Source: Sympetrum striolatum (Eukaryota > Arthropoda > Insecta > Odonata > Libellulidae). From it: a stretch of DNA of 64,000 nt. Below are positions 3,445-51,204 of the stretch, piece by piece (within the stretch, counting starts at the first letter, position 1; the number at the start of each line of letters is the position of its first letter). Below the pieces are notes generated by a model. It saw only the letters and a program-made list of their open reading frames with translations. It did no database searches and was not told the DNA's origin. The DNA is taken from contig OX388350.1 of the NCBI GenBank assembly GCA_947579665.1, positions 43,433,393 to 43,497,392 on the forward strand, given 5' to 3'. The translations under genes and the position numbers were made by a program.

Positions 3445-4069
3445 TGTGGCAATTTCGTCGATAATTTCGTGCCGACGTGACGTCGTGACCGGAGTGACCA
3501 GAGTGAATCTGACTTATGGTGACTTAGGGTGGCGAAGGGTGGCGCCTTCGACTCCTGTTCGCTTTTTATGCCAAATGGTGGAAGAATACAAAATCTTTGC
3601 CAAGAGTCAAAAGTTCGAACAGAGATTATTCCGCGGTTACGTGTGAAAGGCGTGCCAGCCAGCCTGTCCCGTTCACTGTGTGACCGTGAACTCAAGGGCG
3701 AGTCTAGATTGGTGCTGGTGTTAGGAGTTGGGGCTGCTCGAACACACTTCTGCTAAGAGACTTCTTGAAGAAGGTTGTTGTGAGGAGAGAATGTTTCGAC
3801 GTCTTGTGAATTCGGAGTCTTCCCGAATCGACGTTCGTATTGGGTGATTTTGTACTAATTGTAAATGAGCAGTTCAATTTAAAGTGTTATTTTGTTGTAT
3901 GATATTGTTTGACCTCTTAATATTATTACTTATTATATTTATGGTTGAAACTCATTCTCTGATTGATTTTCCGATGTTCGATATCCCGAGCTGATTGCTG
4001 TTCAGAGTAGTTATTGAGTTACCGAATATTTTTCAGTTCTTTCCGAGTACAGAAAAATAAGGTGGCACA
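3445..4069 (+). repeat. 5' LTR of E1 (625 bp, TG...CA)
   Basis: Begins TGTGGCAATTTCG and ends AAGGTGGCACA, the TG...CA ends of an LTR, and is repeated without visible change at 9587-10211. It should hold the promoter and polyadenylation site. Short open frames inside it occur twice because the LTR occurs twice; they are not genes. Confidence 0.97.
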
Positions 4070-4072
4070 AAT

Positions 4073-4083
4073 TGGTAGCAGAG
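4073..4083 (+). other. primer-binding site of E1, initiator tRNA-Met
   Basis: TGGTAGCAGAG lies three bases after the LTR end. It is the reverse complement of CTCTGCTACCA, the 3' end of animal initiator tRNA-Met. Pairing covers 11 bases and then stops. Confidence 0.85.
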
Positions 4084-4257
4084 TGCGGTTTGATTCACAA
4101 CTCTGTTCTTGCAAATTGCTTTTATCGACATCTTATGGACTCTGTTTGTGAGTATTCCCTGTTGATTCTTTGACATGTTGTTATTTCGTATCTTCAATGC
4201 TGACGTTCTTGATTTTTTTTCTAATTGCGCTCCAATTGTAAGTATTGTTTCGTGTTA

Positions 4258-7200
4258 ATGCCACCTCCTAATCCTTACGCCAAAGGTTATTTAAGTTCCT
4301 CTAAAGATCGTCGTAATCGAGGTAGTTCTCGAGAGATTGCCAATATGGAAACTACAACGCAAGCGTCCTCGGAAGATTATTCCGCTAATTCCATTAAGTT
4401 GGATTCTGTCAAGTTATTACTTTCGGATATTCTTCCCTTGGCAAACGTCGAATCCGAAAACTTGTTTAATTTTTTGAGTTCGGTCATTCATGTCTCTGAT
4501 TTATCGCTAATTCCATTCGATTCGCTTATGATATATCTGACGTCGAAATTACCTGTTAATTTTCGGATGTTTTGGTTTGCCGCTATTCAGAGGAAATTAT
4601 CTTTTCAAATGCTGGTCTCGGAAATTTGGCAAGAGTTTGTAAGTTCTCGCGAATACGAGCGTTTGATTGCAGCTAAAGTCAAACGTTATCAAATGCCATC
4701 CGAGCCTCCCTTGGAGTTTTTAAATGTTGTAACTGTTTCGGCAAAGGTTTTGGGGTTGTCTTTATCTGATGTTGAGCTCGTTTCTATTGTTCTCGATGGA
4801 GTAAATCCTCTCACACGAAGTACGTTCGTTTTCCGAAGTAAGCCTACTAATATTTTAGAATTGAAGCAATTATTGTCGTACGCCTCGAAGCAGCTGATGG
4901 ATTTCGCTAATTATTCGGCTACTTTCAACCCCAATTCGCCACGTGCAATCACTTGTACTTTTTGCAATCGTCAAGGTCATACTTTTGGCAATTGTCGTCA
5001 GCGAAGACGAAATTCGAATTCGAATCGGCCGGCTATTACTATGTTCCATGCTACAGATTCGTTGTCTCCTGCTTTGCCAATTGTTAAGGTGACAATTGGT
5101 AATCATTCTCTTGAAGCCTTGATCGATTCTGGTTCTACTTATTCGCTGATTGATGTTAATTCTTGTAACAATTTACAGTTACGTTCGGTTAAAACTCTTC
5201 AGTCCCCAATTCAAATTCGAGGCCTTGGAGGAACCACATTTACGTTAACTCAGCAAATTAAGGTGAAGGTCAAGGTCAGCTCATTCTCTTGGAGCCATTA
5301 TTTCTACCTTGTTGACTTGCCATTTCCAGTACTAATTGGTAGGGATTTTATGTTAAAAACTAGAATGATCTTAGGCCATAACTATTTCACTTTTCAGTCT
5401 GATCCCACTCAAATAATCCCCTTCATTGATAGGCAGCTTGAGAACAGTTCACGAGATACTGCTCACCCGGTGCTAAGCTCAAGCTCTTCCGTTAAAAGGG
5501 TTTCCCCTGCATTATCTACCAATCTGGGATCGAACAAACTGGTGAACTCATGCTCCCCTTCTGATAATTCTGATATTCCACAGGACGTGGTGCAACTAAT
5601 TAATGAATTTCCAGACGTCATTACTACCAAACTTGGGTCTACTGGTGTAATGGCTTATGAAATCCAGCTTACAGATACCACTCCTGTGAGGTCGCATCCA
5701 TTTTCTTTGCCTCCAGCCAAAGCCAAGATCCTACAAGATTCTGTATCATCTCTGATTCAGCAAGGTGTGGTTGAGGCCTCCACATCTCAATGGGCTTCAC
5801 CGGCATTTCTTATTCCCAAGAGGGATAAAGGTTGGAGATTGGTGGTGGATTACCGAAAATTAAATGGAAAAGTACAGGTAGACCCCTATCCAACTCCTTC
5901 GGTAGAACATGCATTTCAATACCTGTCTGAGGCTAAAGTATTTTCTATTCTTGATCTAAATTCTGCCTTTAATCAGATACCTTTGAGTGAGTCTTCTAAG
6001 AAATATACTGCTTTTGTAACGCCTTTCGGTCTCTTTCAATACACCAGATTGCCTTTTGGATTTGTCAATTCTCCACAAGTTTTCACTCGTTTAATGGATC
6101 TTGTTCTTGGTGATTTGAAATATAATTGTGTTTATCCTTATATTGATGATCTTTGTATATTTTCAAAGGATATCAGCTCTCATTTAGTCCATCTGAGAGC
6201 TGTACTCCAAAAACTGCGAGACGCTGGGCTAACTCTTCATCCAGGAAAAATGAAGCTGTGTCAAAATTCTATTTCATTTCTTGGGCATGTTCTTCGAGGG
6301 GGATGTCTCCATATTGACCCGGAAAGAGTTAGACCCATTCAGAATGTTCCTGTTCCGCTAAATCTTCAGCAAGTGTCCAGATTTCTAGGTATGGCAGGTT
6401 TTTATTCTAAATTTATTCCTGGCTATGCGGAGATTGCCCACCCTCTAAATCAACTCAAGAAAAAAGATGCAAGGTTTGTGTGGTCTACTGTTCACAATGA
6501 TGCCTTCAATAAATTAAAAAAGGCTTTAGCCAACCCTCCTGTATTATCAATGCCTTGTTTCACTCGTGATTTCCATTTATTTGTCGATGCCAGTAATGTG
6601 GCTCTTGGTGCAGTTCTAAATCACCATATTGATGGGAAATACTGTCCTGTGGCATATGCTAGTAGAACTTTAAATCCACATGAACAGAAGCTAACTGCAT
6701 ATGAATTGGAATGCATGGCATGTATCTGGGGTATTGAAAAATTTAAAGATTATTTACAATTTAGACCTTTCCATTTGTATACAGACAATGGGGCTTTAAC
6801 CTGGCTGTTTAATCATCCAAAGCAATTGGGAAAAATTGCTAGGATGGTTTTAAAATTATCTTCTTATAAGTTTACAATACATCATATTAAGGCTAATTTA
6901 AATAAACCAGCAGATTGTCTCTCCAGAATTCAGGTACAAGAGTCTGCTACTTCTTGTTTTTTACATAAGCTACCTATGTCTTTTGTTGATATTAGAACCC
7001 ACCAAAATAATGATCCTTACTGTGTACCACTTATTAATAAATTAACTAATGATGGACTTAAGTTAGTTAAAGAAAATGGGATTTCTTTTGCTCTAAAGAA
7101 TAATCTATTGTGTTCTAAAGTTAGTAAGGCTAAAAACTTTAGAGTTGTTGTTCCTGTTGTCATTAGACCAATGTTATTCCAATATTTCCATTCTTTACCT

Positions 7201-8202
7201 AGTTCGGGGCATTTAGGCATATTTAAGACTGTCCAAAAAATATCCCAGAGTTATTGGTGGCCAAACTTTAAGACTGAGATCACTGAAATGGTTAAAAGAT
7301 GTTCGGTATGTCAGATAACAAAGCCCAGAAATGTTCTTTCTTCTGGTGTATTATCTTCTCAGCCTATTAGCAACCCTTGGGAGAGAATTTTCATTGACTT
7401 CGTGGGTCCCCTTCCTCGATCCAAATCAGGAAATTGTTATATTTTTACAGTAATTGATGGTTTTTCTAAATTTGTTTTCCTTGAATCTGTGAGAGATGCT
7501 TCATCCAAAAGTGCAATACATGTGTTATTTCATAATTTGTTCCCAAAATTTGGCTATCCCAAATATATTGTGTCTGATAATGCTACTGCTTTTACCTCGT
7601 CTGCCTTTAAAGATGCTTGCTTCAAAGTTGGGATTAAAATAGTACATACAGCCCCTTACTATCCCTGTCCTAATCTGGTTGAAAGAGTTCATAGAAATCT
7701 GCGTTTTGCACTGTCTGCCTATTGTACGCCTTCTCATAAAATCTGGGATGAATTCCTGGGAGATTTGACATTTGCATTTAATACATCAGTTCATGAAAGT
7801 ACTTTATATTCCCCTGCTAAATTGTTTCTAGGTAGATTGATTCCACATCCCCTAGATAATGTGTGGGACCTACCTAATTGTGTTGTTGATACTTCTTGCT
7901 CTGACCGGGATCTCAGGCAGCACTGGACCAAAGCAGTTCAAAATTTAAACAAGGCTCACAAAAGATATGCTGCCTCTTATAACAAATTACATTCAGTACC
8001 ACAATTCAAAATAGGGGATTTAGTACTGACTCAAAATCATTCAGTAAGTTCAAAACTGAAGAAAAGAATGTCTAAATTGGAGCCTCTATGGTCAGGACCC
8101 TTTTCAATTCTAAGATTTGTTACTCCTGTTACTGTGGTGTTACAGGTTGGGCCTAACAAGGAGAAAATATCACATGTTTCGCAATTAAAAGCATATCATT
8201 AA
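4258..8202 (+). CDS. Gag-Pol polyprotein of Ty3/gypsy element E1
   Basis: One uninterrupted frame of 1314 residues. I choose the ATG at 4258; the frame is open 11 codons further up but without an ATG. The N-terminal part is Gag, ending in a CX2CX4HX4C zinc knuckle (C233, C236, H241, C246). An aspartic protease follows with the DSG motif at D290. Reverse transcriptase has YIDD at 628-631. RNase H has its first aspartate in LFVDAS at about 777. Integrase has an HHCC zinc finger (second CxxC near 1015-1018) and catalytic D1047, D1107 and E1142, then a GPY/F-type module near the C-terminus (PLWSGPF). Gag and Pol share one frame, so no frameshift is needed to make Pol. All catalytic motifs I can check are intact, so the protein is probably functional. 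The integrase D-to-E gap is 34 residues, one fewer than the usual 35. Confidence 0.96.
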   Translation: MPPPNPYAKGYLSSSKDRRNRGSSREIANMETTTQASSEDYSANSIKLDSVKLLLSDILPLANVESENLFNFLSSVIHVSDLSLIPFDSLMIYLTSKLPVNFRMFWFAAIQRKLSFQMLVSEIWQEFVSSREYERLIAAKVKRYQMPSEPPLEFLNVVTVSAKVLGLSLSDVELVSIVLDGVNPLTRSTFVFRSKPTNILELKQLLSYASKQLMDFANYSATFNPNSPRAITCTFCNRQGHTFGNCRQRRRNSNSNRPAITMFHATDSLSPALPIVKVTIGNHSLEALIDSGSTYSLIDVNSCNNLQLRSVKTLQSPIQIRGLGGTTFTLTQQIKVKVKVSSFSWSHYFYLVDLPFPVLIGRDFMLKTRMILGHNYFTFQSDPTQIIPFIDRQLENSSRDTAHPVLSSSSSVKRVSPALSTNLGSNKLVNSCSPSDNSDIPQDVVQLINEFPDVITTKLGSTGVMAYEIQLTDTTPVRSHPFSLPPAKAKILQDSVSSLIQQGVVEASTSQWASPAFLIPKRDKGWRLVVDYRKLNGKVQVDPYPTPSVEHAFQYLSEAKVFSILDLNSAFNQIPLSESSKKYTAFVTPFGLFQYTRLPFGFVNSPQVFTRLMDLVLGDLKYNCVYPYIDDLCIFSKDISSHLVHLRAVLQKLRDAGLTLHPGKMKLCQNSISFLGHVLRGGCLHIDPERVRPIQNVPVPLNLQQVSRFLGMAGFYSKFIPGYAEIAHPLNQLKKKDARFVWSTVHNDAFNKLKKALANPPVLSMPCFTRDFHLFVDASNVALGAVLNHHIDGKYCPVAYASRTLNPHEQKLTAYELECMACIWGIEKFKDYLQFRPFHLYTDNGALTWLFNHPKQLGKIARMVLKLSSYKFTIHHIKANLNKPADCLSRIQVQESATSCFLHKLPMSFVDIRTHQNNDPYCVPLINKLTNDGLKLVKENGISFALKNNLLCSKVSKAKNFRVVVPVVIRPMLFQYFHSLPSSGHLGIFKTVQKISQSYWWPNFKTEITEMVKRCSVCQITKPRNVLSSGVLSSQPISNPWERIFIDFVGPLPRSKSGNCYIFTVIDGFSKFVFLESVRDASSKSAIHVLFHNLFPKFGYPKYIVSDNATAFTSSAFKDACFKVGIKIVHTAPYYPCPNLVERVHRNLRFALSAYCTPSHKIWDEFLGDLTFAFNTSVHESTLYSPAKLFLGRLIPHPLDNVWDLPNCVVDTSCSDRDLRQHWTKAVQNLNKAHKRYAASYNKLHSVPQFKIGDLVLTQNHSVSSKLKKRMSKLEPLWSGPFSILRFVTPVTVVLQVGPNKEKISHVSQLKAYH

Positions 8203-8329
8203 TGAAGAGTTGTTTGCCCAATGAGTTCATGCAAATTCACGGTCCTTAAACTTGTTTCTATTCTGTTGTGTCTCTTGGATGTTTTTGTATTTAGTGTTTG
8301 ACATAATGCTGTTAATATTGATAGGTGGC

Positions 8330-8650
8330 GTAGCAGGATGGGATCTGCATCGCCCGGCAAGATTCTCTTGTCGCAACTACCACCTAACTTTATGTTAGAA
8401 ATATTTTCTATACACCTTTCGACATTGTGTCAAAGCGAAGTTCTCCGGTACCCTAAATTCCACAATTGGGTATCCGGGCCATATGAGTTCTCTTCTTTGA
8501 CCTATTTAGCTAACCTGTGTTCTTTTTTTTTGGGTTTTGCCCTTGAATAATATTGTAAAGGCAGAGAAGAGACTCTATTCCTGAAAACAGCCCCAGTTTT
8601 CAGTTTTACATGGGTTTTGGACCCCTTAGGGACAGATCTATCTGAATTAA
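8330..8650 (+). promoter_or_regulatory. structured 3' non-coding region of E1
   Basis: This is the part of the non-coding tail most similar to E2. It contains three hairpins. Hairpin I is 8356-8372, stem GGCAAGA with TCTTGTC. Hairpin II is 8445-8477, stem CCGG+TACCC with GGGTA+CCGG and one bulged T. Hairpin III is 8581-8603, stem CTGAAAA with TTTTCAG and loop CAGCCCCAG. E2 has the same three at 42271-42288, 42367-42402 and 42533-42555, with paired substitutions in the stems. Blocks between them such as ATGAGTTCTCT, TTAGCTAACCT and ATAATATTGTAAAG are shared too. The role is unknown; RNA export, packaging, translation or stability are candidates. Confidence 0.8.
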
Positions 8651-9360
8651 GTAATTATTGTATTGTTTGAAGTATATTTATGGCAAATGAAGGCATCACA
8701 CAGCACAATTATGCTAATTGTTTGACTATGTTTCTAAGTAGCTGCTAATTTAATGGAGGACTTGGCATTCATTTAAATGATTTCTTATATTTGTTCTGCT
8801 CATTTGGCATTTATTGTAATTGAGTTATTATATTTGTTCTGCTCCTTTGTTAATATTCAAGGACACCATTTGTTATTTTATCTATTGCCCCACATAATTA
8901 AACTAATGATAATTCGTAAATAACAAATATTTCTCTGTGTTTTCCAAAGAATCAGGCACCCAATTTTGTAAAATGGAAGTTTTTTGTTAATAAACAGAAA
9001 AGTCTTTCTGTTGCTCTCTTGTCTTCTTGACTGAAAGTTATTCCAACCCTTTGGAACTCATCTCAGTCCACAATGTTTTCATTTAGTGTAATTTTGGCCC
9101 TAATTTCTGGCAAAAAGTGTATTGCCAATAAATATGCCTTCCATTCTATATTTACTAAGGTTATTTTCTGTAATTGCACTACTGCAAAGGGTTTAATCCT
9201 GACAATTATATAATTAATTGATAGTTAAGCTAATAATTATGATATCACATTTATATTTGTTACAATTAATTTCTAAATTGTTGATGCCTAAACAATGTGC
9301 TTGGAATATAATGAATCTATAGAGACTGCCACTGGTGTGATATTGTGATCAAGCGACATT

Positions 9361-9495
9361 GTTATTTCTTTCTGGGCATCATAAAAGAGACAATGCTATT
9401 GTGTGCCTAGTTGATGTCCAGTTAACTCAGTTACTTCTTTCTGGCCATCATAATTAAGACAGTGCCATTGTGTTCCCTATTGATAGCCAGTGAAC
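9361..9495 (+). repeat. ~69-bp tandem duplication before the E1 polypurine tract
   Basis: Two diverged copies start at 9361 (GTTATTTCTTTCTGGGCATC) and 9430 (GTTACTTCTTTCTGGCCATC). Each continues into a run resembling AGACA-TGC-ATTGTGT. The copies differ at many places, so the duplication is older than the insertion and belongs to the element lineage. Confidence 0.75.
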
Positions 9496-9570
9496 TTATC
9501 CCAATTGGCTCAATTAAAGAACTATGAACCCTTCGTTTGTTTGAAAAAAGAAGATGGACATATTTTTTCC

Positions 9571-9586
9571 AAAAAGCAAGGGGGGA
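9571..9586 (+). other. polypurine tract of E1
   Basis: The 16 bases AAAAAGCAAGGGGGGA directly precede the 3' LTR and are purine except for one C. This is the expected priming site for plus-strand DNA synthesis. Confidence 0.9.
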
Positions 9587-10211
9587 TGTGGCAATTTCGT
9601 CGATAATTTCGTGCCGACGTGACGTCGTGACCGGAGTGACCAGAGTGAATCTGACTTATGGTGACTTAGGGTGGCGAAGGGTGGCGCCTTCGACTCCTGT
9701 TCGCTTTTTATGCCAAATGGTGGAAGAATACAAAATCTTTGCCAAGAGTCAAAAGTTCGAACAGAGATTATTCCGCGGTTACGTGTGAAAGGCGTGCCAG
9801 CCAGCCTGTCCCGTTCACTGTGTGACCGTGAACTCAAGGGCGAGTCTAGATTGGTGCTGGTGTTAGGAGTTGGGGCTGCTCGAACACACTTCTGCTAAGA
9901 GACTTCTTGAAGAAGGTTGTTGTGAGGAGAGAATGTTTCGACGTCTTGTGAATTCGGAGTCTTCCCGAATCGACGTTCGTATTGGGTGATTTTGTACTAA
10001 TTGTAAATGAGCAGTTCAATTTAAAGTGTTATTTTGTTGTATGATATTGTTTGACCTCTTAATATTATTACTTATTATATTTATGGTTGAAACTCATTCT
10101 CTGATTGATTTTCCGATGTTCGATATCCCGAGCTGATTGCTGTTCAGAGTAGTTATTGAGTTACCGAATATTTTTCAGTTCTTTCCGAGTACAGAAAAAT
10201 AAGGTGGCACA
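9587..10211 (+). repeat. 3' LTR of E1 (625 bp)
   Basis: The same 625 bases as 3445-4069 with no difference seen. It is followed by ATAC, matching the four bases before the 5' LTR. Confidence 0.97.
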
Positions 10212-10935
10212 ATACGTACTAGTTATAAACATAGTTAATATATAATACATGCATTATAAACAGTCATAGAAAAGAATATTTCTTCACATACATATATTAT
10301 ACTATTTACCGAATAACTAAATAATGCATCCATAATATCATTTAAACCGTTTTACTGGATTCTTCGGGATTCGTAGCACTATAACCAAGGTTAAGCCACG
10401 AAATAGGAAATTTTTGATGAAATATGTGGGTTTGCACGTGGTTTCTTCATTCTCGCCTTCTCATCATTTTCCTAAGAAGATTACTCAAGTTCAAAGATTA
10501 AAGCGAGCGAAGACTACCAAAGAAGTTAGGGCTGGTTGTTACTTCTTGTTTTGCGAGCTCAGCTTCTTTTCGAATAAGCGATGACGAGGTCGCCAGAAAT
10601 GCGAAGTGTTGGAGAAAACTTAGATGTAACTAGTTTAAGGCCGAACAAATTGGTAATTATTTTCAGAGCATTCCTTCCCCCCTCTTCGACTGCATCCCAA
10701 CTCCTCCCAACTCCATACCTCAGTCACTCCTCTTCCTCTCCTCAGCTCCCTCTCCTCTGTTTCCTCTCTCTTTTTCAGCAAATTGCGTGAAAGAAAGGCC
10801 AGGGGGGACGGAAAAGCCTGGAGGCTTTGTAAGAATTGCGAGGGAAAATTATGAGGAAAGCCCCAAATGAGTGGCTGAGATACGTAAATCTAGATTAAGC
10901 TAATCTTTTCTCGACATTTATTCTTCTATAGCTAT

Positions 10936-37280: not shown

Positions 37281-37989
37281 TGTGACGAATTTCTAGGGAA
37301 ATTTGGCCATAGTAAGTTGCCCATTTTTAAGTTGCCCGTTTACAAGTTGCTGTCAGAATGGCTCAGTCAGAAGGGCCGAACGGAGAAGGGCCGTTAGAAA
37401 ACACGACTTTTATACTGACCAGTGCAGTGATACTGTCGGCGATCGGACTAATTAACACGGCGGAGTTCTGTGACAGTTTCTAGCAACGTGATTGGCCAAT
37501 TTGCGGAACCCCTTTCGTTGCGAATTTCTGTGCTTCATTGTTTTTCCCTCTTCGTCTCCAAACACGGACTCCTCCACTGAGAAGGTCATTTTCGCCCGAG
37601 AGCGTTCGTCGCTGAACATTACCCATCCACGCCGGTGGCGGCAGACTTTCTTTCTTTCCTTGTGAATTTACGTGGGACACTCTCTAAAGGCTAAGTTCAT
37701 ATCATTATTATTTGTGCAAACTGAACCATATTATATTTGTGTATAATAATCTGTTATTTTTCACTTGTTCACATTTACTTAGTATTATTGTTCTGTGGTA
37801 TCGTGCTTGAGAGTATTATCCTTGATAAAGGTCTTTCAGAGTGATTGTTTCTCATTATTTCGCATTTGGTCGTTTGTGTCGCTGGCCCTGTTGACTTTCT
37901 AACAGGTATTTCACGAAAATAATCGAATGCCGTGTACCGGTGGAGGACAAGGTGGGTTCGCCTTCCTTTCTATTGGGTATACTGCAACA
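37281..37989 (+). repeat. 5' LTR of E2 (~709 bp)
   Basis: Starts TGTGACGAATTTCTAGGG and ends TATACTGCAACA, just before the primer-binding site. The first 92 bases match 43373-43464 with one mismatch. The right boundary is inferred from the TG...CA rule and the primer site, since the other LTR lacks this part. Confidence 0.85.
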
Positions 37990-37991
37990 AT

Positions 37992-38002
37992 TGGTAGCAG
38001 AG
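37992..38002 (+). other. primer-binding site of E2, initiator tRNA-Met
   Basis: TGGTAGCAGAG, the same 11 bases as in E1, complementary to the 3' end of initiator tRNA-Met, starts two bases after the inferred LTR end. Confidence 0.85.
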
Positions 38003-38172
38003 CATGGTTGTTTCACTTTCGTGTTGAATTCTGTTAGAGTGCGAATTTTCGGGCTCACCGACGTTATTCTTTGTAGTTTCGTCTAATGTTTCATTTTTGC
38101 CTCGTGGTTGCTAAGTCGCACCTTAATTTGTAGATGTTTCTTGTATCTCTTGTTTAATTATTGGTTATTTGA

Positions 38173-41100
38173 ATGCCTCTAAATTCCTATCAAAAGGAAT
38201 TCATTACGACTGCACAAGATCGCGCTAAGAAAATGGTCCCTACGAAGACCGCGGCCGGCCCAAGTCAAGGTGACGAAGCATGTGGGGAGACCCCGGTATC
38301 TTTGTCTCGCACTCCTGACGTTAATTTTGATTTGGGTAAGCAGCTAATTCACGATATCGCTCCTTTGACAGATGCGACTTCCGAAAACTTATTTGCATTC
38401 TTTTCCTCTGTGTCGGAAGTAATAGATTTGGAGCTGTTTCCTTTAAATTCTTTATTAACTTTGTTACTTTGTAAGGTACCCTCGATTTTACGTAATTTCT
38501 TCTTGTTGGCAATTAAAAACCGGTTGTCTTGGGCTCAAATTACTCGACAATTTTGGGAGGAGGAGATTAGTTCGCGAGAGTACGAGAAATTAATAACGGT
38601 CAAGGTTAAAAGGTTTCAATTTCCGAACGAAAAGCCACTTCACTTTCTCCATAATATACGTAATGCTATCACGGTGCTTGGATTATCGTATTCTGAAGAG
38701 GAGTTTGTTTCGCTCATTTTGAATGGTGTGAGTCCGTTAACGCGAAGTACTTTTATATTTCAATCTCGCCCGACGACTCTCGAAGGTTTGACCGCGTTGC
38801 TTAAATTTTCCTCTAAGCAGCTCGCGGATTCTACCGATTATTCTCGCGCTTTCTCAAATGTTAGTCGTCGCGAGACTCCTCCTGTTACGTGTTCTTTCTG
38901 TCATCGAAGGGGTCATGAGTCTACCGAATGTTATCGTCGGAGAAGATTGAGCAACAGAAATCTCCCTCGAATTTCGATGGCAAATTTCGAAGATTCTTCT
39001 CTTAACTCGTTGCCGCTTGTTCCGGTTAGTATCGGACATATTCAAACGGTTGCTCTTGTCGACACTGGTTCCTCCGTCTCACTGTTAGATCCCCAGTTCG
39101 GGAAGAAACTGAAAATTAATATTAAATCTGGTTCTAATTCCGCGATCCACTTGCAAACTATCGGAGGGCATAAACTTAATTTGTTCGAGTATGTAAAATT
39201 AAAAGTGAAAATTCATTCATTATCTTGGTACCATCAATTTTACCTGTCTTCATTACCGGTGCCGCTGTTATTGGGAAGGGACTTTATTGCAAAGACCAAA
39301 ATGATTGTTGCAGCCGATTGTTTTTCTTTCGCGGTTTCGCCCGCGTGTACTTTTCCGTACGTCAATTTGCCTCGTCCACAAGAGTCTTGTCAAATTGTTC
39401 ATTCGAGTTCCTCTGTGAGTGAAGGTAGTCCGGTCTTTTGGCCGGAAGCAGGTCCTGGTAATATGGCAGCGAATTCTGTTGAAACTCCTTTTGATTCGAC
39501 TCTACCTTCGGGTTTCCGGGAGATAATTTCTCAGTTCTCTGATGTTGTCACCTCGAAGATGGGCATGACCAACATTATGCAATATCGAATCGAATTAAAT
39601 GATACTTCTCCAATACGTTCTCATCCCTACACTCTCCCTCCTCCAAAAGCGAAGTTAATGCGGGAACATTTAGACTCTTTAATTCAGCAAGGAGTAATAG
39701 AACCATCCAACTCGGAATGGGCTTCCCCTGCCTTTTTGATTCCAAAGAAGGCTGATAAATTACGGTTGGTGGTTGATTATCGTAAATTGAATAAAAAGGT
39801 TAAAATCGACCCGTACCCAACTCCGTCTGTTGAACATGCTTTTCAGTATTTATCCAAGGCTAAAGTATTTTCCATACTTGATTTGCACTCTGCTTTTCAC
39901 CAAATTCCTTTGTGTGAATCTTCCAAGAAATTGACCGCTTTTGTTACGCCTTTTGGTTTGTACCAATTCACACGTTTGCCATTTGGTTTTGTTAATTCAC
40001 CCCAAGTATTCACCAGAATGATGGATATTGTGTTAGGGGATTTGAAATACAATTGTGTGTACCCCTATATCGACGATTTATGTATTTTTTCTGAAGATTT
40101 GTCTTCTCATAAGGAACATCTGACGGCCGTTCTTCACCAACTTAGGAGAGCCGGTCTTACGATTCATGAGGATAAGATTAAATTATGCCAGACTTCTATT
40201 TCATTCCTTGGACACTGCATTCGAGATGGAGCACTGCTTGTCGACTCGGAAAGGGTACGTCCAATTCTCAATTTTCCTGTGCCCACCAGTATTAAACAAG
40301 TAGTTAGGTTTCTCGGTATGGCTGGTTTTTATGCTAAATTTATTCCTCAGTTCGCTGAAATTTCTTATCCGTTGAATCAATTGAAAAAGAAGGGTGCTCG
40401 TTTTATTTGGTCCTCGGAGCATTCTTCCTCTTTTCAAAAATTAAAGGCCGCCCTTGCTAATCCTCCGGTGTTAACCATGCCATCGTTTGATCGAGAATTC
40501 CATCTTTTCGTCGATGCTAGTCAGATAGCTTTGGGCGCTGTTCTTAATCATAAAACGAATGATAAATTCTCTCCTGTTGCTTATGCAAGTAAAACTTTGT
40601 CGCCTCATGAGCAAAGGTTAACGACCTACGAGTTAGAGTGCATGGCGTGCTCATGGGCCGTCGAAAAATTCAAAGATTATCTCCAGTTCGCTCATTTTCA
40701 CCTCTATACCGATAATGGGGCTTTGACTTGGTTGTTCTCTCATCCCAAGCAGCTTGGCAAAATTGGCAGGATGGTTTTAAAGCTATCCACTTATAAATTT
40801 ACTATACATCATGTCAGGGGTACAGTTAATAAACCAGCCGATTGTTTGTCAAGAGTTGTGATTCCTCCTCATCCTCCACTTTCTTCGGAAACTGTTTCCT
40901 CCATAAGATTCCTCTCTCTTTTATCGACATTCGTGAACACCAGAAAAAGGATCCGGTTCTGGGACTATTGTTGCATAAAATCTCGATGTCGAAAGATAGA
41001 CAGTTAATTTCGGATGGTATTAATTATAAATTAAAGAATGATATATTGTGTTACAAGCCTCTTAAGTCAAAGAAGTGCAAAGTCGTTGTCCCCGCTGCTC

Positions 41101-42146
41101 TTCGCCCTATGATATTTCAATACTTTCATTGCATTCCTTCTGGGGCTCATTTGGGAATTATGAAAACTGCACATAAGATTTCTCAAGATTACTGGTGGTT
41201 GAATTCCAAGAAGGAAATAAAAGATATGGTCACTCGATGTCATATTTGCCAAATTTCGAAGCCCAGAAACAGTCTTCCTCCGGGTCTCTTGTCCTCTCAA
41301 ACTCAATCTGCACCCTGGGAGAGAATATTTATCGACCATGTGGGCCCATTGCCACGGTCTAAGAAAGGGAATTGTTATGTATTCACCGTTGTTGATGGTT
41401 TCTCTAAATTTACCTTCCTCGAAGCCGTCAAGGATGCTTCCTCTGCAAGTGTAATTAAGGTCCTTTTTCATAATTTATTTCACAAGTTTGGTTATCCAAA
41501 GTATTTAGTTTCGGATAATGCGAGTTCTTTTAAGTCCGAGGTATTTAGGAACATGTGCTTCAGCTATGGTATTAAGCAAATTTTCACGTCCCCCTATTAC
41601 CCCTGTCCGAATATAGCGGAAAGAGTTCATCGAAATTTACGTTTCGCTTTGTCTGCCTTTATCCACGAACACCATGTTGTATGGGATGATATGCTTGGTG
41701 ATTTGTCCTTTGCGTTTAATACTGCTGTTCATGAGGGTACTGGTTTTTCGCCTTGTAAATTGTTCCTTGGAAGAAATCTCCCCCATCCCTTGAATAATAT
41801 TTGGGATATTCCACTCTCGCTACGTGACGATACTACTTCTGAAGATAGAATGTGGGAATATTGGGGGAATGCAGTTAAAAATCTGAAAAGAGCCCATCAA
41901 AAATATTCAAATACTTATAATAAATCACACAGTACACCCAGTTTTCACGTTGGCGAGATGGTTCTTTGCAAAAATCACCCTATTAGTTCCAAATTAAAGA
42001 AAAGGACTGCTAAACTAGAGCCTTTGTGGACTGGTCCGTTTGAAATACTCAAACTGCTAACTCCTGTAACTGTGGCCGTAAAGTCTGGGTCGTCTCAAGA
42101 AAAAATATGTCATGTGTCTCATCTCAAGCATTATCGCTCTCCATAA
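38173..42146 (+). pseudogene. Gag-Pol of E2, one frameshift between RNase H and integrase
   Basis: Frame one (ATG 38173 to stop 41007) carries Gag with a CX2CX4HX4C knuckle (C240-C253), protease DTG at D297, reverse transcriptase YIDD at 632-635 and RNase H. Homology to E1 in this frame ends near 40857 (CLSR). From about 40893 (CFLHK) it resumes in the -1 frame and runs to TAA at 42144-42146 with the integrase zinc finger, D-D-34-E residues and GPF module. The spacer is 38 nt, one short of a whole number of codons, so a 1-base deletion is the simplest explanation. Apart from this break I see no stop. No slippery heptamer was recognised, so programmed shifting is unlikely. Confidence 0.9.
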
Positions 42147-42255
42147 TCCCGTCATTATTCGTCACCAATGTTTTGATCTTTTCATGGTAAAACACTTTCG
42201 CATTTGTATTATTAATTACGTTGATTACGTAAAAGTTATTCTTTGGCGTTGTGCT

Positions 42256-42570
42256 GGTACCTCATCGCCCGGCGGTATCTCTACCGTCGCAATCTCCATC
42301 TAATTTTTTTTAATAAAATTAGAAATAATTCTTAATTAAATGAAATGTTGTTTTCTGCATAGTTTGCCGGCACCCTAATAATGCCAATAATTGGGTGTCC
42401 GGGTCATGTGAGTTCTCTCTCAAATCCTCTTAGCTAACCTCTGTGATTTTTTTTTTGGCATTTGCCGTTTTTTTTATGTCATTGCGCTGCCTTGACGATA
42501 ATATTGTAAAGGGTTTGTGGGAGACTCGCTTTCTGAACGTAGCCCCAGCGTTCAGCGTAATACTGGTTTT
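42256..42570 (+). promoter_or_regulatory. structured 3' non-coding region of E2
   Basis: Counterpart of 8330-8650 in E1. Hairpin I is 42271-42288, stem GGCGGTA with TACCGTC. Hairpin II is 42367-42402, CCGG+CACCC with GGGTG+CCGG and the same bulged T. Hairpin III is 42533-42555, stem CTGAACG with CGTTCAG and loop TAGCCCCAG. CATCGCCCGGC before the first arm and GTCGCAA at its end are identical in both elements. Function unknown. Confidence 0.8.
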
Positions 42571-43200
42571 CCACCAGCTGTATATAAATATATGTGTTTT
42601 TGTAATTATTAATATGACTGGGTACCCATTACTATTATTATTCATGTGTAAATATTATCATCATACAATTTTGTTATAATTATGTCAAGAAATGCCTTGT
42701 TTTGTGAAACTTTTCATTTACTCTATTCGGCAGGAAGTGTCATTTAATTTCTTGTCCTGCCAAGACGTATTTTGAGTTTGAAATTTGCATTTTCTTATGA
42801 TTTGCCAGACTGGGTTTAATGGTTTACATTGTATCTCGCAGGATGAACTATTTTGTAATACTATTTAATGCTATCCCCTGCAGATAACTGTCAATTAGTT
42901 TAAATATGTAATTTCATTTTTCTGACGTATTATCAGTTTGTCATAGGGTGTTCTGATTGTTTTTTTTTATGCTCACTTACTTTATGGTGTGCAAAGTAAT
43001 TATCTAAGCATTGTTTTCATTGAAATATAAAGGAGACCGCAAAATTCCAATTGCTTGACTTAGCAGTTCAGCGGCATACAGTCTTTGTTAAAGAAGTATT
43101 TAAATTGATTTAATATGGTTTATAGTGAAAGAGACACAAGTGTATATTATGTTATTTGAATTCAAAAACAAAGATGAATCAGTAGGAAAAGGACAGTGTC

Positions 43201-43372: not shown

Positions 43373-43464
43373 TGTGACGAATTTCTAGGGAAATTTGGCC
43401 ATAGTAAGTTGCCCATTTTAAAGTTGCCCGTTTACAAGTTGCTGTCAGAATGGCTCAGTCAGAA
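43373..43464 (+). repeat. 3' LTR remnant of E2 (92 bp)
   Basis: 91 of 92 bases match the start of the 5' LTR (37281-37372). The match then ends abruptly at AGAA|TTTTTG. The remaining ~617 bases of the LTR are missing. Confidence 0.92.
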
Positions 43465-49304: not shown

Positions 49305-50455
49305 CGTAATTTGCTTATATTAGTGGAATCTTTTTCAAAATGTGGTTAATGTGGAGTTTTGCGTATTTTGGGCATAATAGTGGAATCCTTGTTACAATGT
49401 GAAATGATCTCGTTTAGATCTTTAAGACAAGTGCTAATTTGAACAAATTTACTAGAATATTATGCAAAATATAGCAATAAAACTGAAATTATCGAAAAAA
49501 TGGGCATTTATGGCCCATTCTTTGTAATTTGCAGTTAAAATTTGAATTTTTCTTCAAAATATGGGAGGATATAGCTTAGATCATCAAAACGAGTCCACCC
49601 TTTGACAAGGTTTTCATGAATGTCAGGCAAAATACAGCCAATAATATAGATAAAAAATCTAAAAAACACGTTTCTTGACGATTTTTCCTTGATTTGGTCA
49701 TAAAAGTAGATTCGCTCTTCAATATATGGATTTAATTCCCTTAGATCCTCGAAACGAGTCCACATATTCTTTCGATTTACTTGAATTTTATGCAAAATAA
49801 GGCAAAAATCGGAAATATTTCGAAAAAAATGCCCATTTTTCGCCGATTTATGCCTAATATGCTAATAAAAATTAAGTTTCTGTTCAATATTTGGAAAGAT
49901 CATTCTGTTATAATAAAAACTCGTCCAAATACAAGTATGTTTTCACGAATTTTAGGCAAGATACAGCTAAATAACCAAATATATTCGAAAAATTGCACAT
50001 TTTTCCTTAATTTGATGATTAAATTGAAAGTTTTGTTCAAAATATTCAAAGATCTCGCTTAGATCTCAAAAACAAGTCCAACTTCCACTAGATTTCCTCG
50101 AATTTATGTAAAGTACAAAAAATAAAGAGATTCTAAGAAATGCCCTATTTTCACCGATTGTCCTGTTATTTGCAAATAAAAGTAGAATTTTCTTCAACAT
50201 ATGGAATGATCTCGCTAGAAACTTAAAAACAATTCCTAACATGAACAAGCATCCATTTTTTAGCCGTTTTTTCACTAATTTGCTTATATCAGTGGAATTT
50301 GTTTTCAAAATAAGGAACGACTTCGCGAACTACATAAAACGTGTTAATATTTGGCTAAATTTACTGGAATGTTAGGCAAAATAAGTAAAAAAAAATACAT
50401 TTTCCAAACAAAGGCCATTTATCGCCAATTTTCCCGTATTTTGTGCATATAATTG
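49305..50455. repeat. diverged ~160-bp satellite, about seven monomers
   Basis: A block like TGGAATGATCTCGCTTAGATC, followed by AAAACGAGTCCA-like text, recurs near 49401, 49562, 49726, 49892, 50046, 50202 and 50312. Spacing is 154-166 bp except for a shorter last one. Other shared blocks are AATTTTAGGCAAAATA and CGAAAAA-TGCCCATTTTTC. Very AT-rich. Open frames inside are by-products. Confidence 0.8.
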
Positions 50456-50458
50456 GAC

Positions 50459-51204
50459 TCCCGGAGTCGATCTCGGAACATCGACCTAGGGTCATTGACC
50501 TATGGTCATAGACCGCAAGTCGTCCCGGTGTCGACCTCCCGGAATCGCCCTCCCGGAGTCGACATCCCGGAGTTGACCTCCCCGATTCGACCTCACTGAG
50601 TCGACCTCACGGGGTTGATTTCGGGTCATTGATTTCGGGTCATCGACCTCGGGTCATCGACCTTAGGTCATCGACCTCGGGTCAACGACCTTAGGTCATT
50701 GACCTCGGGTCATCGGCCTTAGGTCATCGACCTCGGGTCATCGACCTTAGGTCATTGACCTCGGGTCATCGACCTCGGGTCATCGACCTCGGGTCATCGA
50801 CCTCGGAGCATCGACCTCGGGTCATCGACCTCGGAGCATCGACCTCGGGTCATCGACCTCGGTTCAACGACCTCGGGTCATCGACCTCGGTTCAACGACC
50901 TCGGGTCATAGACCGCAAGGCATTCCGGAGTCGAAGCCCCGGAGTCGACCTCCCAGAATCGCCCTCCCGGAGTCGACATCCCGGAGTTGACCTCCCGGAT
51001 TCAACCTCACTGAGTCGACCTCAAGGAGTTGATTTCGGGTCATTGACCTCGGGTCATTGACCTCGGGTCATCGACCTCGGGTCATTGACCTTAGGTCATC
51101 GACCTCGGGTCATCCTCAGGTCATAGACCACAAGGCATTCCGGAGTCGACCTACCGGAATCGAAGTACCGGAGTCGACCTCCTGGAGTCGAAGCCCCGGA
51201 GTCG
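50459..51204. repeat. 14-bp minisatellite with higher-order structure
   Basis: Built from 14-bp units such as TCATCGACCTCGGG, with variants ending TTAGG, CGGAG and CGGTT, and a second type like GAGTCGACCTCCCG. A composite block starting GGTCATAGACCGCAAG at 50503 recurs at about 50905, and in part at 51119. Strongly GC-rich compared with the AT-rich satellite that precedes it. The 101-codon frame at 50755-51060 simply translates the repeat. Confidence 0.9.

What the first reader, a model, noticed from the sequence alone, without database searches (positions are those of the whole stretch)
8351..8603. Three covarying hairpins shared by the 3' non-coding regions of two Ty3/gypsy elements
E1 and E2 are far apart in LTR and most non-coding sequence, yet both carry the same three hairpins in the same order after gag-pol. 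Hairpin I: GGC-AAGA/TCTT-GTC in E1 against GGC-GGTA/TACC-GTC in E2, three compensatory pairs, with CATCGCCC before and GCAA after unchanged. Hairpin II: TACCC/GGGTA against CACCC/GGGTG, one compensatory pair, with the same flanking CCGG/CCGG and bulged T. Hairpin III: CTGAAAA/TTTTCAG against CTGAACG/CGTTCAG, two compensatory pairs, loop YAGCCCCAG. Paired changes in stems with fixed flanks and loop are the mark of a selected RNA structure. A role in export, packaging, translation or 3' processing would be plausible; I know of no description of it.
Basis: partly seen in the sequence, partly recalled or inferred. Interest (0 to 1): 0.88.

Follow-up and report, generated by a model that had tools for sequence, protein, structure and literature searches.

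The report
Conserved folded RNA in gypsy retrotransposons
Two distantly related retrotransposon families in one (likely insect) genome share a roughly 300-base non-coding segment just after their protein gene, in which paired base changes keep the same predicted RNA fold; the fold likely helps the element's RNA leave the nucleus and be used, but its function is untested.

Summary
After gag-pol, E1 (8327-8624) and E2 (42245-42577) share a block of about 300 nt that can be laid out as eight matching helices, not three. The two elements are 55-60% identical in protein, and their LTR and leader areas do not align. On a sequence-only alignment, the plus-strand consensus fold scores z = -8.1 against 200 column shuffles (0 of 200 as good); seven control comparisons gave z from -1.33 to +0.54. 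Of 56 pairs aligned helix by helix, 39 are unchanged, 14 changed on both sides and still pair, 2 changed on one side, 1 broke. No Rfam family matches the block. Both families are multicopy with near-identical copies. Only two independent lineages could be compared, because most genome searches did not complete; the distant-family covariation test is still missing. Function is inferred: a structured plus-strand element of this size between pol and the 3' LTR works most like a retroviral RNA export element (CTE/RTE type). A decay shield near the stop codon and a packaging signal are the main rivals. ENE membership is not met in E1.

The parts
3445..4070 (+). E1 5' LTR (626 nt)
   Evidence: 100% identical to 9587-10212 over 626 nt
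4225..8202 (+). E1 gag-pol open frame, one frame (first ATG 4258)
   Evidence: protease, RT, RNase H, integrase domains
8327..8354 (+). E1 H1: 8327-8330 / 8351-8354, 4 pairs, unchanged in E2 (42245-42248 / 42266-42269)
8356..8372 (+).
8384..8398 (+). E1 H3: 5 pairs, 1 double change; the E2 partner has 8 pairs (42300-42307 / 42315-42322)
8445..8477 (+).
8485..8575 (+).
8532..8542 (+). E1 H6: 3 pairs, one a G-C to C-G change in E2 (42457-42466)
8581..8603 (+).
8612..8624 (+). E1 H8: 4 pairs, 1 double change (G-C to U-A); E2 42563-42577
8203..9586 (+). E1 spacer between gag-pol stop and 3' LTR; the block lies in its first third
9587..10212 (+). E1 3' LTR
38173..42146 (+). E2 gag-pol, in two overlapping open frames (38173-41007 and 40833-42146)
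42245..42577 (+). E2 copy of the structured block (H1-H8)
43373..43464 (+). start of E2 3' LTR; only 92 nt match the 5' LTR at 37281

Best explanation
Two Ty3/gypsy families share a 3' block of about 300 nt whose predicted plus-strand RNA fold is preserved by compensatory changes, and it likely acts in cis as an RNA export element (CTE/RTE type) that would carry the unspliced genomic RNA out of the nucleus so that it can be translated and packaged. Shown: the shared block, the compensatory changes and their statistical weight, the position 98-124 nt after the gag-pol stop codon, the lack of a frame open in both, and the presence in multicopy families. Inferred: selection on the RNA itself, and that rigid helices present fixed loops (AGCCCCA, UUAGCUAA, the U tract, AUAAUAUUGUAAAG) to a host export adaptor. 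Nothing here tests export. The confidence below is for the mechanism; for a selected RNA structure alone it is about 0.97.
For: Consensus fold -54.0 kcal/mol, z = -8.1, 0 of 200 shuffles as good; seven controls z -1.33 to +0.54. Each sequence alone folds better than its shuffles: z = -3.39 (1 of 200 as good) and -3.99 (0 of 100). Of 17 changed pairs among 56, 14 are double changes that still pair, 2 one-sided, 1 broken; 200000 simulations gave at most 13 double changes and at least 3 broken. Plus strand favoured: -54.0 against -46.5, with 2 (E1) and 4 (E2) G-U pairs. No frame open through the block in both. Multicopy: E1 LTRs identical over 626 nt, 40 scored of 125 candidates near 100%; E2 40 scored of 102 at 98-100%. 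Why export: size and place fit; a 173-nt CTE and a 226-nt RTE were used between gag and the 3' LTR, and that paper's reference list names a study in which the simian retrovirus element needs an extensive secondary structure (PMC1363727, passages). Selection on helices points to a structured signal rather than to a string of unstructured protein sites.
Against: No export, binding or expression data. Only two independent lineages. CTE/RTE sequences were not fetched or compared; a CTE mutant that keeps the fold but lacks the NXF1 site is inactive (PMC1363727, passages), and whether such a site exists here is unknown. Closeness to the stop codon is not needed for an export element and fits a decay shield as well. 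Predicted helices are not stable in every context: folded within 700 nt, E2 loses H4 and H1 (mean pair probability 0.0) and E1 H8 falls to 0.37; in the block alone E2 H1 is 0.33 and E1 H3 0.19. By the count of double changes alone, the automatic fold (12) is not beyond all shuffles (mean 5.2, maximum 14). The two older E2-like copies add no double change.
Confidence: 0.4

Rival explanations
1. [quoted passage not shown]
For: The gag-pol stop is followed by 1384 (E1) and 1226 (E2) nt of spacer before the LTR, and H1 starts 124 and 98 nt after it. RSE activity needs closeness to the stop codon, and a 1342-nt 3' UTR triggers decay (PMC4764554 and PMC5580461, passages). CU-rich motifs and a U tract of 9-10 lie in the block.
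Against: RSE function came back with six PTBP1 sites put at arbitrary positions (PMC4764554, passages), so it does not seem to need a fixed fold, whereas here the helices are what is conserved. Some CU motifs lie inside helix H5. Whether the host's PTB protein does this is unknown.
Confidence: 0.2
2. A packaging or dimer signal: the fold is bound by Gag, and the conserved palindrome UUAGCUAA in the H5 loop starts dimer contacts.
For: The palindrome is identical in both elements, in the loop closed by H5. [quoted passage not shown]
Against: The dimer palindromes that paper describes for Ty3, and by comparison HIV-1 and Ty1, are at the 5' end (PMC11381356, passages). An 8-nt palindrome in a loop of this size is not rare by chance (estimate, not tested). 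If Gag had to tell two families in one cell apart, their signals would be expected to differ (inference).
Confidence: 0.2
3. A regulated 3' splice site: CUAAC, U tract and AG inside the H5 loop, a relic of a third gene.
For: CUAAC, a U tract and then UUGUAAAG in the same order in both, with no AG between. E1 has GTGAGT and GTAAGT in its leader.
Against: The AG-free stretch is not unusual (0.17 of shuffles in E1, 0.07 in E2). In E2 the same scan finds GTAAGT and GTGGGT only upstream of the primer site and none in the leader. No shared downstream frame was seen. AAG is a weak acceptor (recalled).
Confidence: 0.07
4. A triple-helix stability element (ENE) whose U tracts bind the poly(A) tail.
For: Evade, a plant element with a long spacer between its frame and its LTR, carries such a motif there (PMC12501189, passages). 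E2 has U tracts on both sides of the G-C hairpin H6.
Against: E1, the element with identical LTRs, has 9 U on the 5' side but only 2 on the 3' side of H6.
Confidence: 0.03
5. Chance pairing between two related sequences, or conservation for a reason other than RNA structure.
For: Only two lineages; some helices (H6, H8) are short and were picked by eye on the same two sequences. E1 has a 70-residue ATG frame at 8338 through much of the block.
Against: z = -8.1 with controls near zero on an alignment made without structure. In E2 the longest plus-strand open stretch is 51 codons (over 42147-42585).
Confidence: 0.02

Closest known systems
Constitutive transport element (CTE) and RNA transport element (RTE) of mammalian retroviruses and retrotransposons
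   Same: Structured, 173 and 226 nt, plus strand, used between gag and the 3' LTR (PMC1363727, passages); no element protein needed (recalled).
   Different: Here about 300 nt with eight helices, in Ty3/gypsy elements; no Rfam match; adaptor binding unknown; sequences not compared.
[quoted passage not shown]
   Same: Lies right behind a stop codon that is followed by a long 3' non-coding stretch (PMC4764554, PMC5580461, passages).
   Different: RSE is 400 nt behind gag, not gag-pol, and works through PTBP1 sites that may be put elsewhere; here helices are conserved.
ENE of Evade (Copia93, Arabidopsis)
   Same: Structured element in a long spacer between the frame and the 3' LTR of an LTR retrotransposon (PMC12501189, passages).
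   Different: Facing U tracts are absent from E1; the elements here are Ty3/gypsy; the Evade motif is a fold-back structure with U-rich internal loops, not a row of helices.
Yeast Ty3 genomic RNA elements
   Same: Ty3/gypsy; the 3' UTR has cis functions (PMC11381356, passages).
   Different: The Ty3 3' UTR is 214 nt (same passages); the spacer here is 1.2-1.4 kb.

Membership tests
Ty3/gypsy LTR retrotransposon (host element) | Domain order protease, RT, RNase H, integrase between LTRs | tested here: met
   clade within Ty3/gypsy not determined; E2's 3' LTR is only 92 nt long
CTE/RTE-type RNA export element | Conserved plus-strand secondary structure between the last gene and the 3' LTR | tested here: met
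   on two lineages
CTE/RTE-type RNA export element | Binding of NXF1 or RBM15 by loop motifs | not testable with these tools
   needs a binding assay; no CTE/RTE sequence was compared
CTE/RTE-type RNA export element | Raises cytoplasmic share of unspliced RNA | not testable with these tools
   no expression data
RSE-type decay shield | Position close behind the stop codon with a long 3' UTR | tested here: met
   98 and 124 nt; spacer 1226 and 1384 nt
RSE-type decay shield | Clusters of CU-rich PTB sites | tested here: inconclusive
   a few UCUU, UUCUCU and U6 motifs in each, partly inside H5; no enrichment test
ENE triple-helix element | U tracts facing each other across a G-C stem | tested here: not met
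   E1: 9 U against 2 U around H6; E2 has both tracts
Any Rfam 15 family | Covariance-model match | tested here: not met
   E1 8200-9000: one match outside the block (snoZ5, 17.9 bits against a gathering score of 60, E = 3.6); E2 42147-42700: none at E <= 5
Retroelement dimer initiation site | Palindrome in a loop that makes intermolecular contacts | tested here: inconclusive
   palindrome UUAGCUAA present in both; contact not testable

The most novel reading that the evidence does not exclude
A new structural class of cis-acting RNA: an eight-helix 3' element, unlike CTE, RTE, RSE or ENE, kept by Ty3/gypsy lineages whose proteins have diverged by 40-45%, which lets env-less animal retrotransposons move their full-length RNA out of the nucleus without an element-encoded export protein.
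Probability: 0.3. Interest if true: 0.78.

Novelty: new variant of a known kind. Interest (0 to 1): 0.6.

Why it matters
How intron-less animal LTR retrotransposons export, protect and package their genomic RNA is poorly known (recalled). A covariation-supported RNA in a long, otherwise unexplained 3' spacer gives a defined piece of about 300 nt to test in cultured insect cells, with compensatory changes supplied by nature as controls. It also suggests that unexplained spacers between pol and the 3' LTR in other elements may hold similar signals.

Tried and rejected
Relatives in viral contigs (6 of 8 scans used): the integrase piece matched nothing; an alignment of 15 relatives matched 46 stretches, none confirmed; of four DNA patterns, two gave 0, one gave 13 stretches and one gave 1. 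None of the 13 had the conserved GCTAACC within 400 nt downstream. Model R1 found nothing better than E = 0.69 in those 13, in L048 or in L014, while it found the 6 E1 blocks of L045-L047. R1 used an automatic structure of 34 pairs that holds H5 only in part, because MAFFT set E2 one column off in H5. Bacterial genomes: 47 stretches matched a pattern, 1 encoded a distant relative (44 residues, in a Treponema MAG), without the block. Coding explanation: E1 has a 70-residue ATG frame at 8338 and E2 a 67-residue one at 42476, but no frame is open through the block in both. Shared leader structure: z = -1.33, not convincing. Splice-site and ENE readings: see rivals. Third family in the window's genome: a pattern with C/T after the GGC of H2 gave 0 matches; a pattern with G/T in H7 gave 2 places (the control pattern gave 1), both E2-like copies at 88-90%. 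In those: L079, 61 pairs: 54 same, 3 one-sided, 3 broken, 1 not paired in E2 itself; L080, 42 pairs, since its match starts inside H3: 36 same, 2 one-sided, 2 broken, 1 gap, 1 not paired in E2; no double change. That is decay, neither for nor against. A pattern on H4 did not complete and not sent again. Within 30 fetched E2 copies, 3 of 14 substituted sites lie in helices (all in H2) and 11 outside (read by hand); I did not count this as evidence. The simulation used helices laid out by hand on the same two sequences and so overstates; the test does not have this fault, though its shuffles keep only column classes, not dinucleotides.

Full report
What is there. The window lies in a 1.35 Gb assembly. 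In a protein search with the E1 integrase piece, the best-scoring hits are unnamed metagenome proteins; of 14 hits whose name gives a species, 11 are insects, 2 fishes and 1 a rust fungus, and the two most identical named ones (63% and 51%) are from the dragonfly Ladona fulva. The host is therefore likely an insect or other arthropod, which I did not identify. E1 has two 626-nt LTRs identical to each other (3445-4070, 9587-10212) around one gag-pol frame ending at 8202. E2 starts at 37281, has gag-pol in two overlapping frames ending at 42146, and matches its own 5' LTR only over 92 nt at 43373-43464. After gag-pol each has a spacer, 1384 nt in E1 and 1226 nt in E2.

Distance between E1 and E2. 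Proteins are 55% (gag to RNase H) and 60% (integrase) identical. LTR and leader areas give no cross-match at E 1e-3, and in the 3' spacers only E1 8439-8544 / E2 42361-42469 aligns at that cut-off (76%); with the smaller search space a second piece, holding H7, also passes (E = 1e-4). So the shared block is the only non-coding part that aligns between two old lineages at these settings.

Structure. A MAFFT alignment made from sequence alone, folded with RNAalifold, gives -54.0 kcal/mol on the plus strand; 200 shuffles that keep match, mismatch and gap columns give -20.2 +/- 4.18 (z = -8.1, none as low). The minus strand gives -46.5 (z = -7.2), as expected of a complement. Seven control comparisons from the same two elements (stop to block, two stretches after the block, two coding stretches, leader, E1 block against E2 after-block) give z from -1.33 to +0.54. 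Each element folded alone is also more stable than its shuffles (z -3.39 and -3.99). A first version of the test, with shorter 3' ends, gave z = -7.2 over 300 shuffles; there the count of double changes (12) was above the shuffle mean (5.2) but below its maximum (14).

Eight helices, H1 to H8, can be laid out in the same order in both. The most telling new one is H5: 16 pairs around a loop of 57 nt in E1 and 83 nt in E2, with the same bulged U near its base; 9 pairs same, 5 changed on both sides, 1 on one side, 1 a U-U in E2. In total 56 pairs aligned helix by helix: 39 same, 14 double changes, 2 one-sided, 1 broken. In 200000 simulations of independent change with the observed rates, the highest count of double changes was 13 and the lowest count of broken pairs 3. 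The helices were laid out by hand on the same two sequences, so this simulation is a description more than a test. Predicted pair probabilities support most helices, but not all in all contexts: in a 700-nt context E2 loses H4 and H1 and E1 H8 drops to 0.37; in the block alone E1 H3 is 0.19 and E2 H1 0.33.

Letters shared outside helices include GCAA after H2, UUAGCUAACCU (with the palindrome UUAGCUAA), a U tract of 9-10, AUAAUAUUGUAAAG at the 3' end of the H5 loop (its last G is the first base of the H5 3' strand), and the H7 loop AGCCCCA. No frame is open through the block in both elements, though each has one ATG frame of about 70 residues over part of it. Rfam has no match in the block.

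Family context. Own-genome searches were answered four times. E1 block: 40 scored of 125 candidates, all printed as 100% identical; the 30 fetched are 99.6-100%, at most 5 distinct sequences. E2 block: 40 scored of 102 candidates, 98-100%; the 30 fetched hold at most 16 distinct sequences. These upper bounds may count one indel placed in two ways twice. Pattern searches gave 0 and 2 places, the two being older E2-like copies at 88-90% identity that fit the model and show decay without compensation. A third distant family, the proper test, was not reached: a search with a dragonfly protein was sent eleven times from then on and never answered.

How it likely works. Pairing kept through change, plus strand, place between the last gene and the LTR, and a size near that of CTE (173 nt) and RTE (226 nt; PMC1363727, passages) point to a structured cis signal used by the full-length RNA. 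I commit to export as most likely (0.4). An RSE-like shield (0.2) would explain the place 98-124 nt behind the stop codon; against it, RSE works through PTBP1 sites that may be placed freely (PMC4764554, passages), which would not select for helices. Packaging or dimerisation (0.2) would explain the palindrome; the dimer sites described for Ty3 and its comparisons are at the 5' end (PMC11381356, passages). C. elegans Cer1 shows that an LTR retrotransposon can need a way to export unspliced RNA, there by its own protein CERV (PMC10309623, passages); in the two spacers here I saw no shared frame that could encode such a protein (frames from 25 residues on, compared by eye). ENE fails in E1.

Novelty. 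The listings of eight paper searches showed no description of such an element in Ty3/gypsy spacers; most subscription-journal papers are not in that library. I file it as a new variant of a known kind (structured cis-acting RNA of LTR retroelements) and do not call it a CTE, RTE, RSE or ENE.

Noticed in passing
G000:C1:33195000-33214800 (L045, L046), C40:305000-314900 (L047), C5:78966077-79003096, C10:81398544-81453913: Both families form head-to-tail arrays: E1 blocks 6138 nt apart (4 in C1) and 6132 nt apart (3 in C40), with one full LTR between successive blocks in the stretches fetched; E2 blocks 7 in a row every 6114 nt in C5 and 10 in a row every 6115 nt in C10.
   Followed up: partly
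window 50440-51204: Array of 14-nt tandem units with 28- and 42-nt higher periods and more than one unit type.
   Followed up: no
window 43465 onward: E2's 3' LTR stops matching after 92 nt; the cause was not examined.
   Followed up: no
window 40833-41007: E2 changes reading frame between RNase H and integrase, where E1 stays in one frame; not examined further.
   Followed up: no
window 42447-42456 and 42367-42577: The U tract in the H5 loop varies in length among the 30 fetched E2 copies, while helices H4 to H8 show no substitution in them.
   Followed up: partly
window 4148 and 4238: The E1 leader holds GTGAGT and GTAAGT before gag, like retroviral splice donors; the same scan finds none in the E2 leader.
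   Followed up: partly
window 4071-4090 and 37985-38006: Both elements carry ATTGGTAGCAGAG after the 5' LTR, which looks like a primer site for initiator tRNA-Met (recalled, not tested).
   Followed up: no
window 8762-8849 and 9361-9496: Two short tandem duplications (43 and 69 nt) in the rest of the E1 spacer.
   Followed up: no
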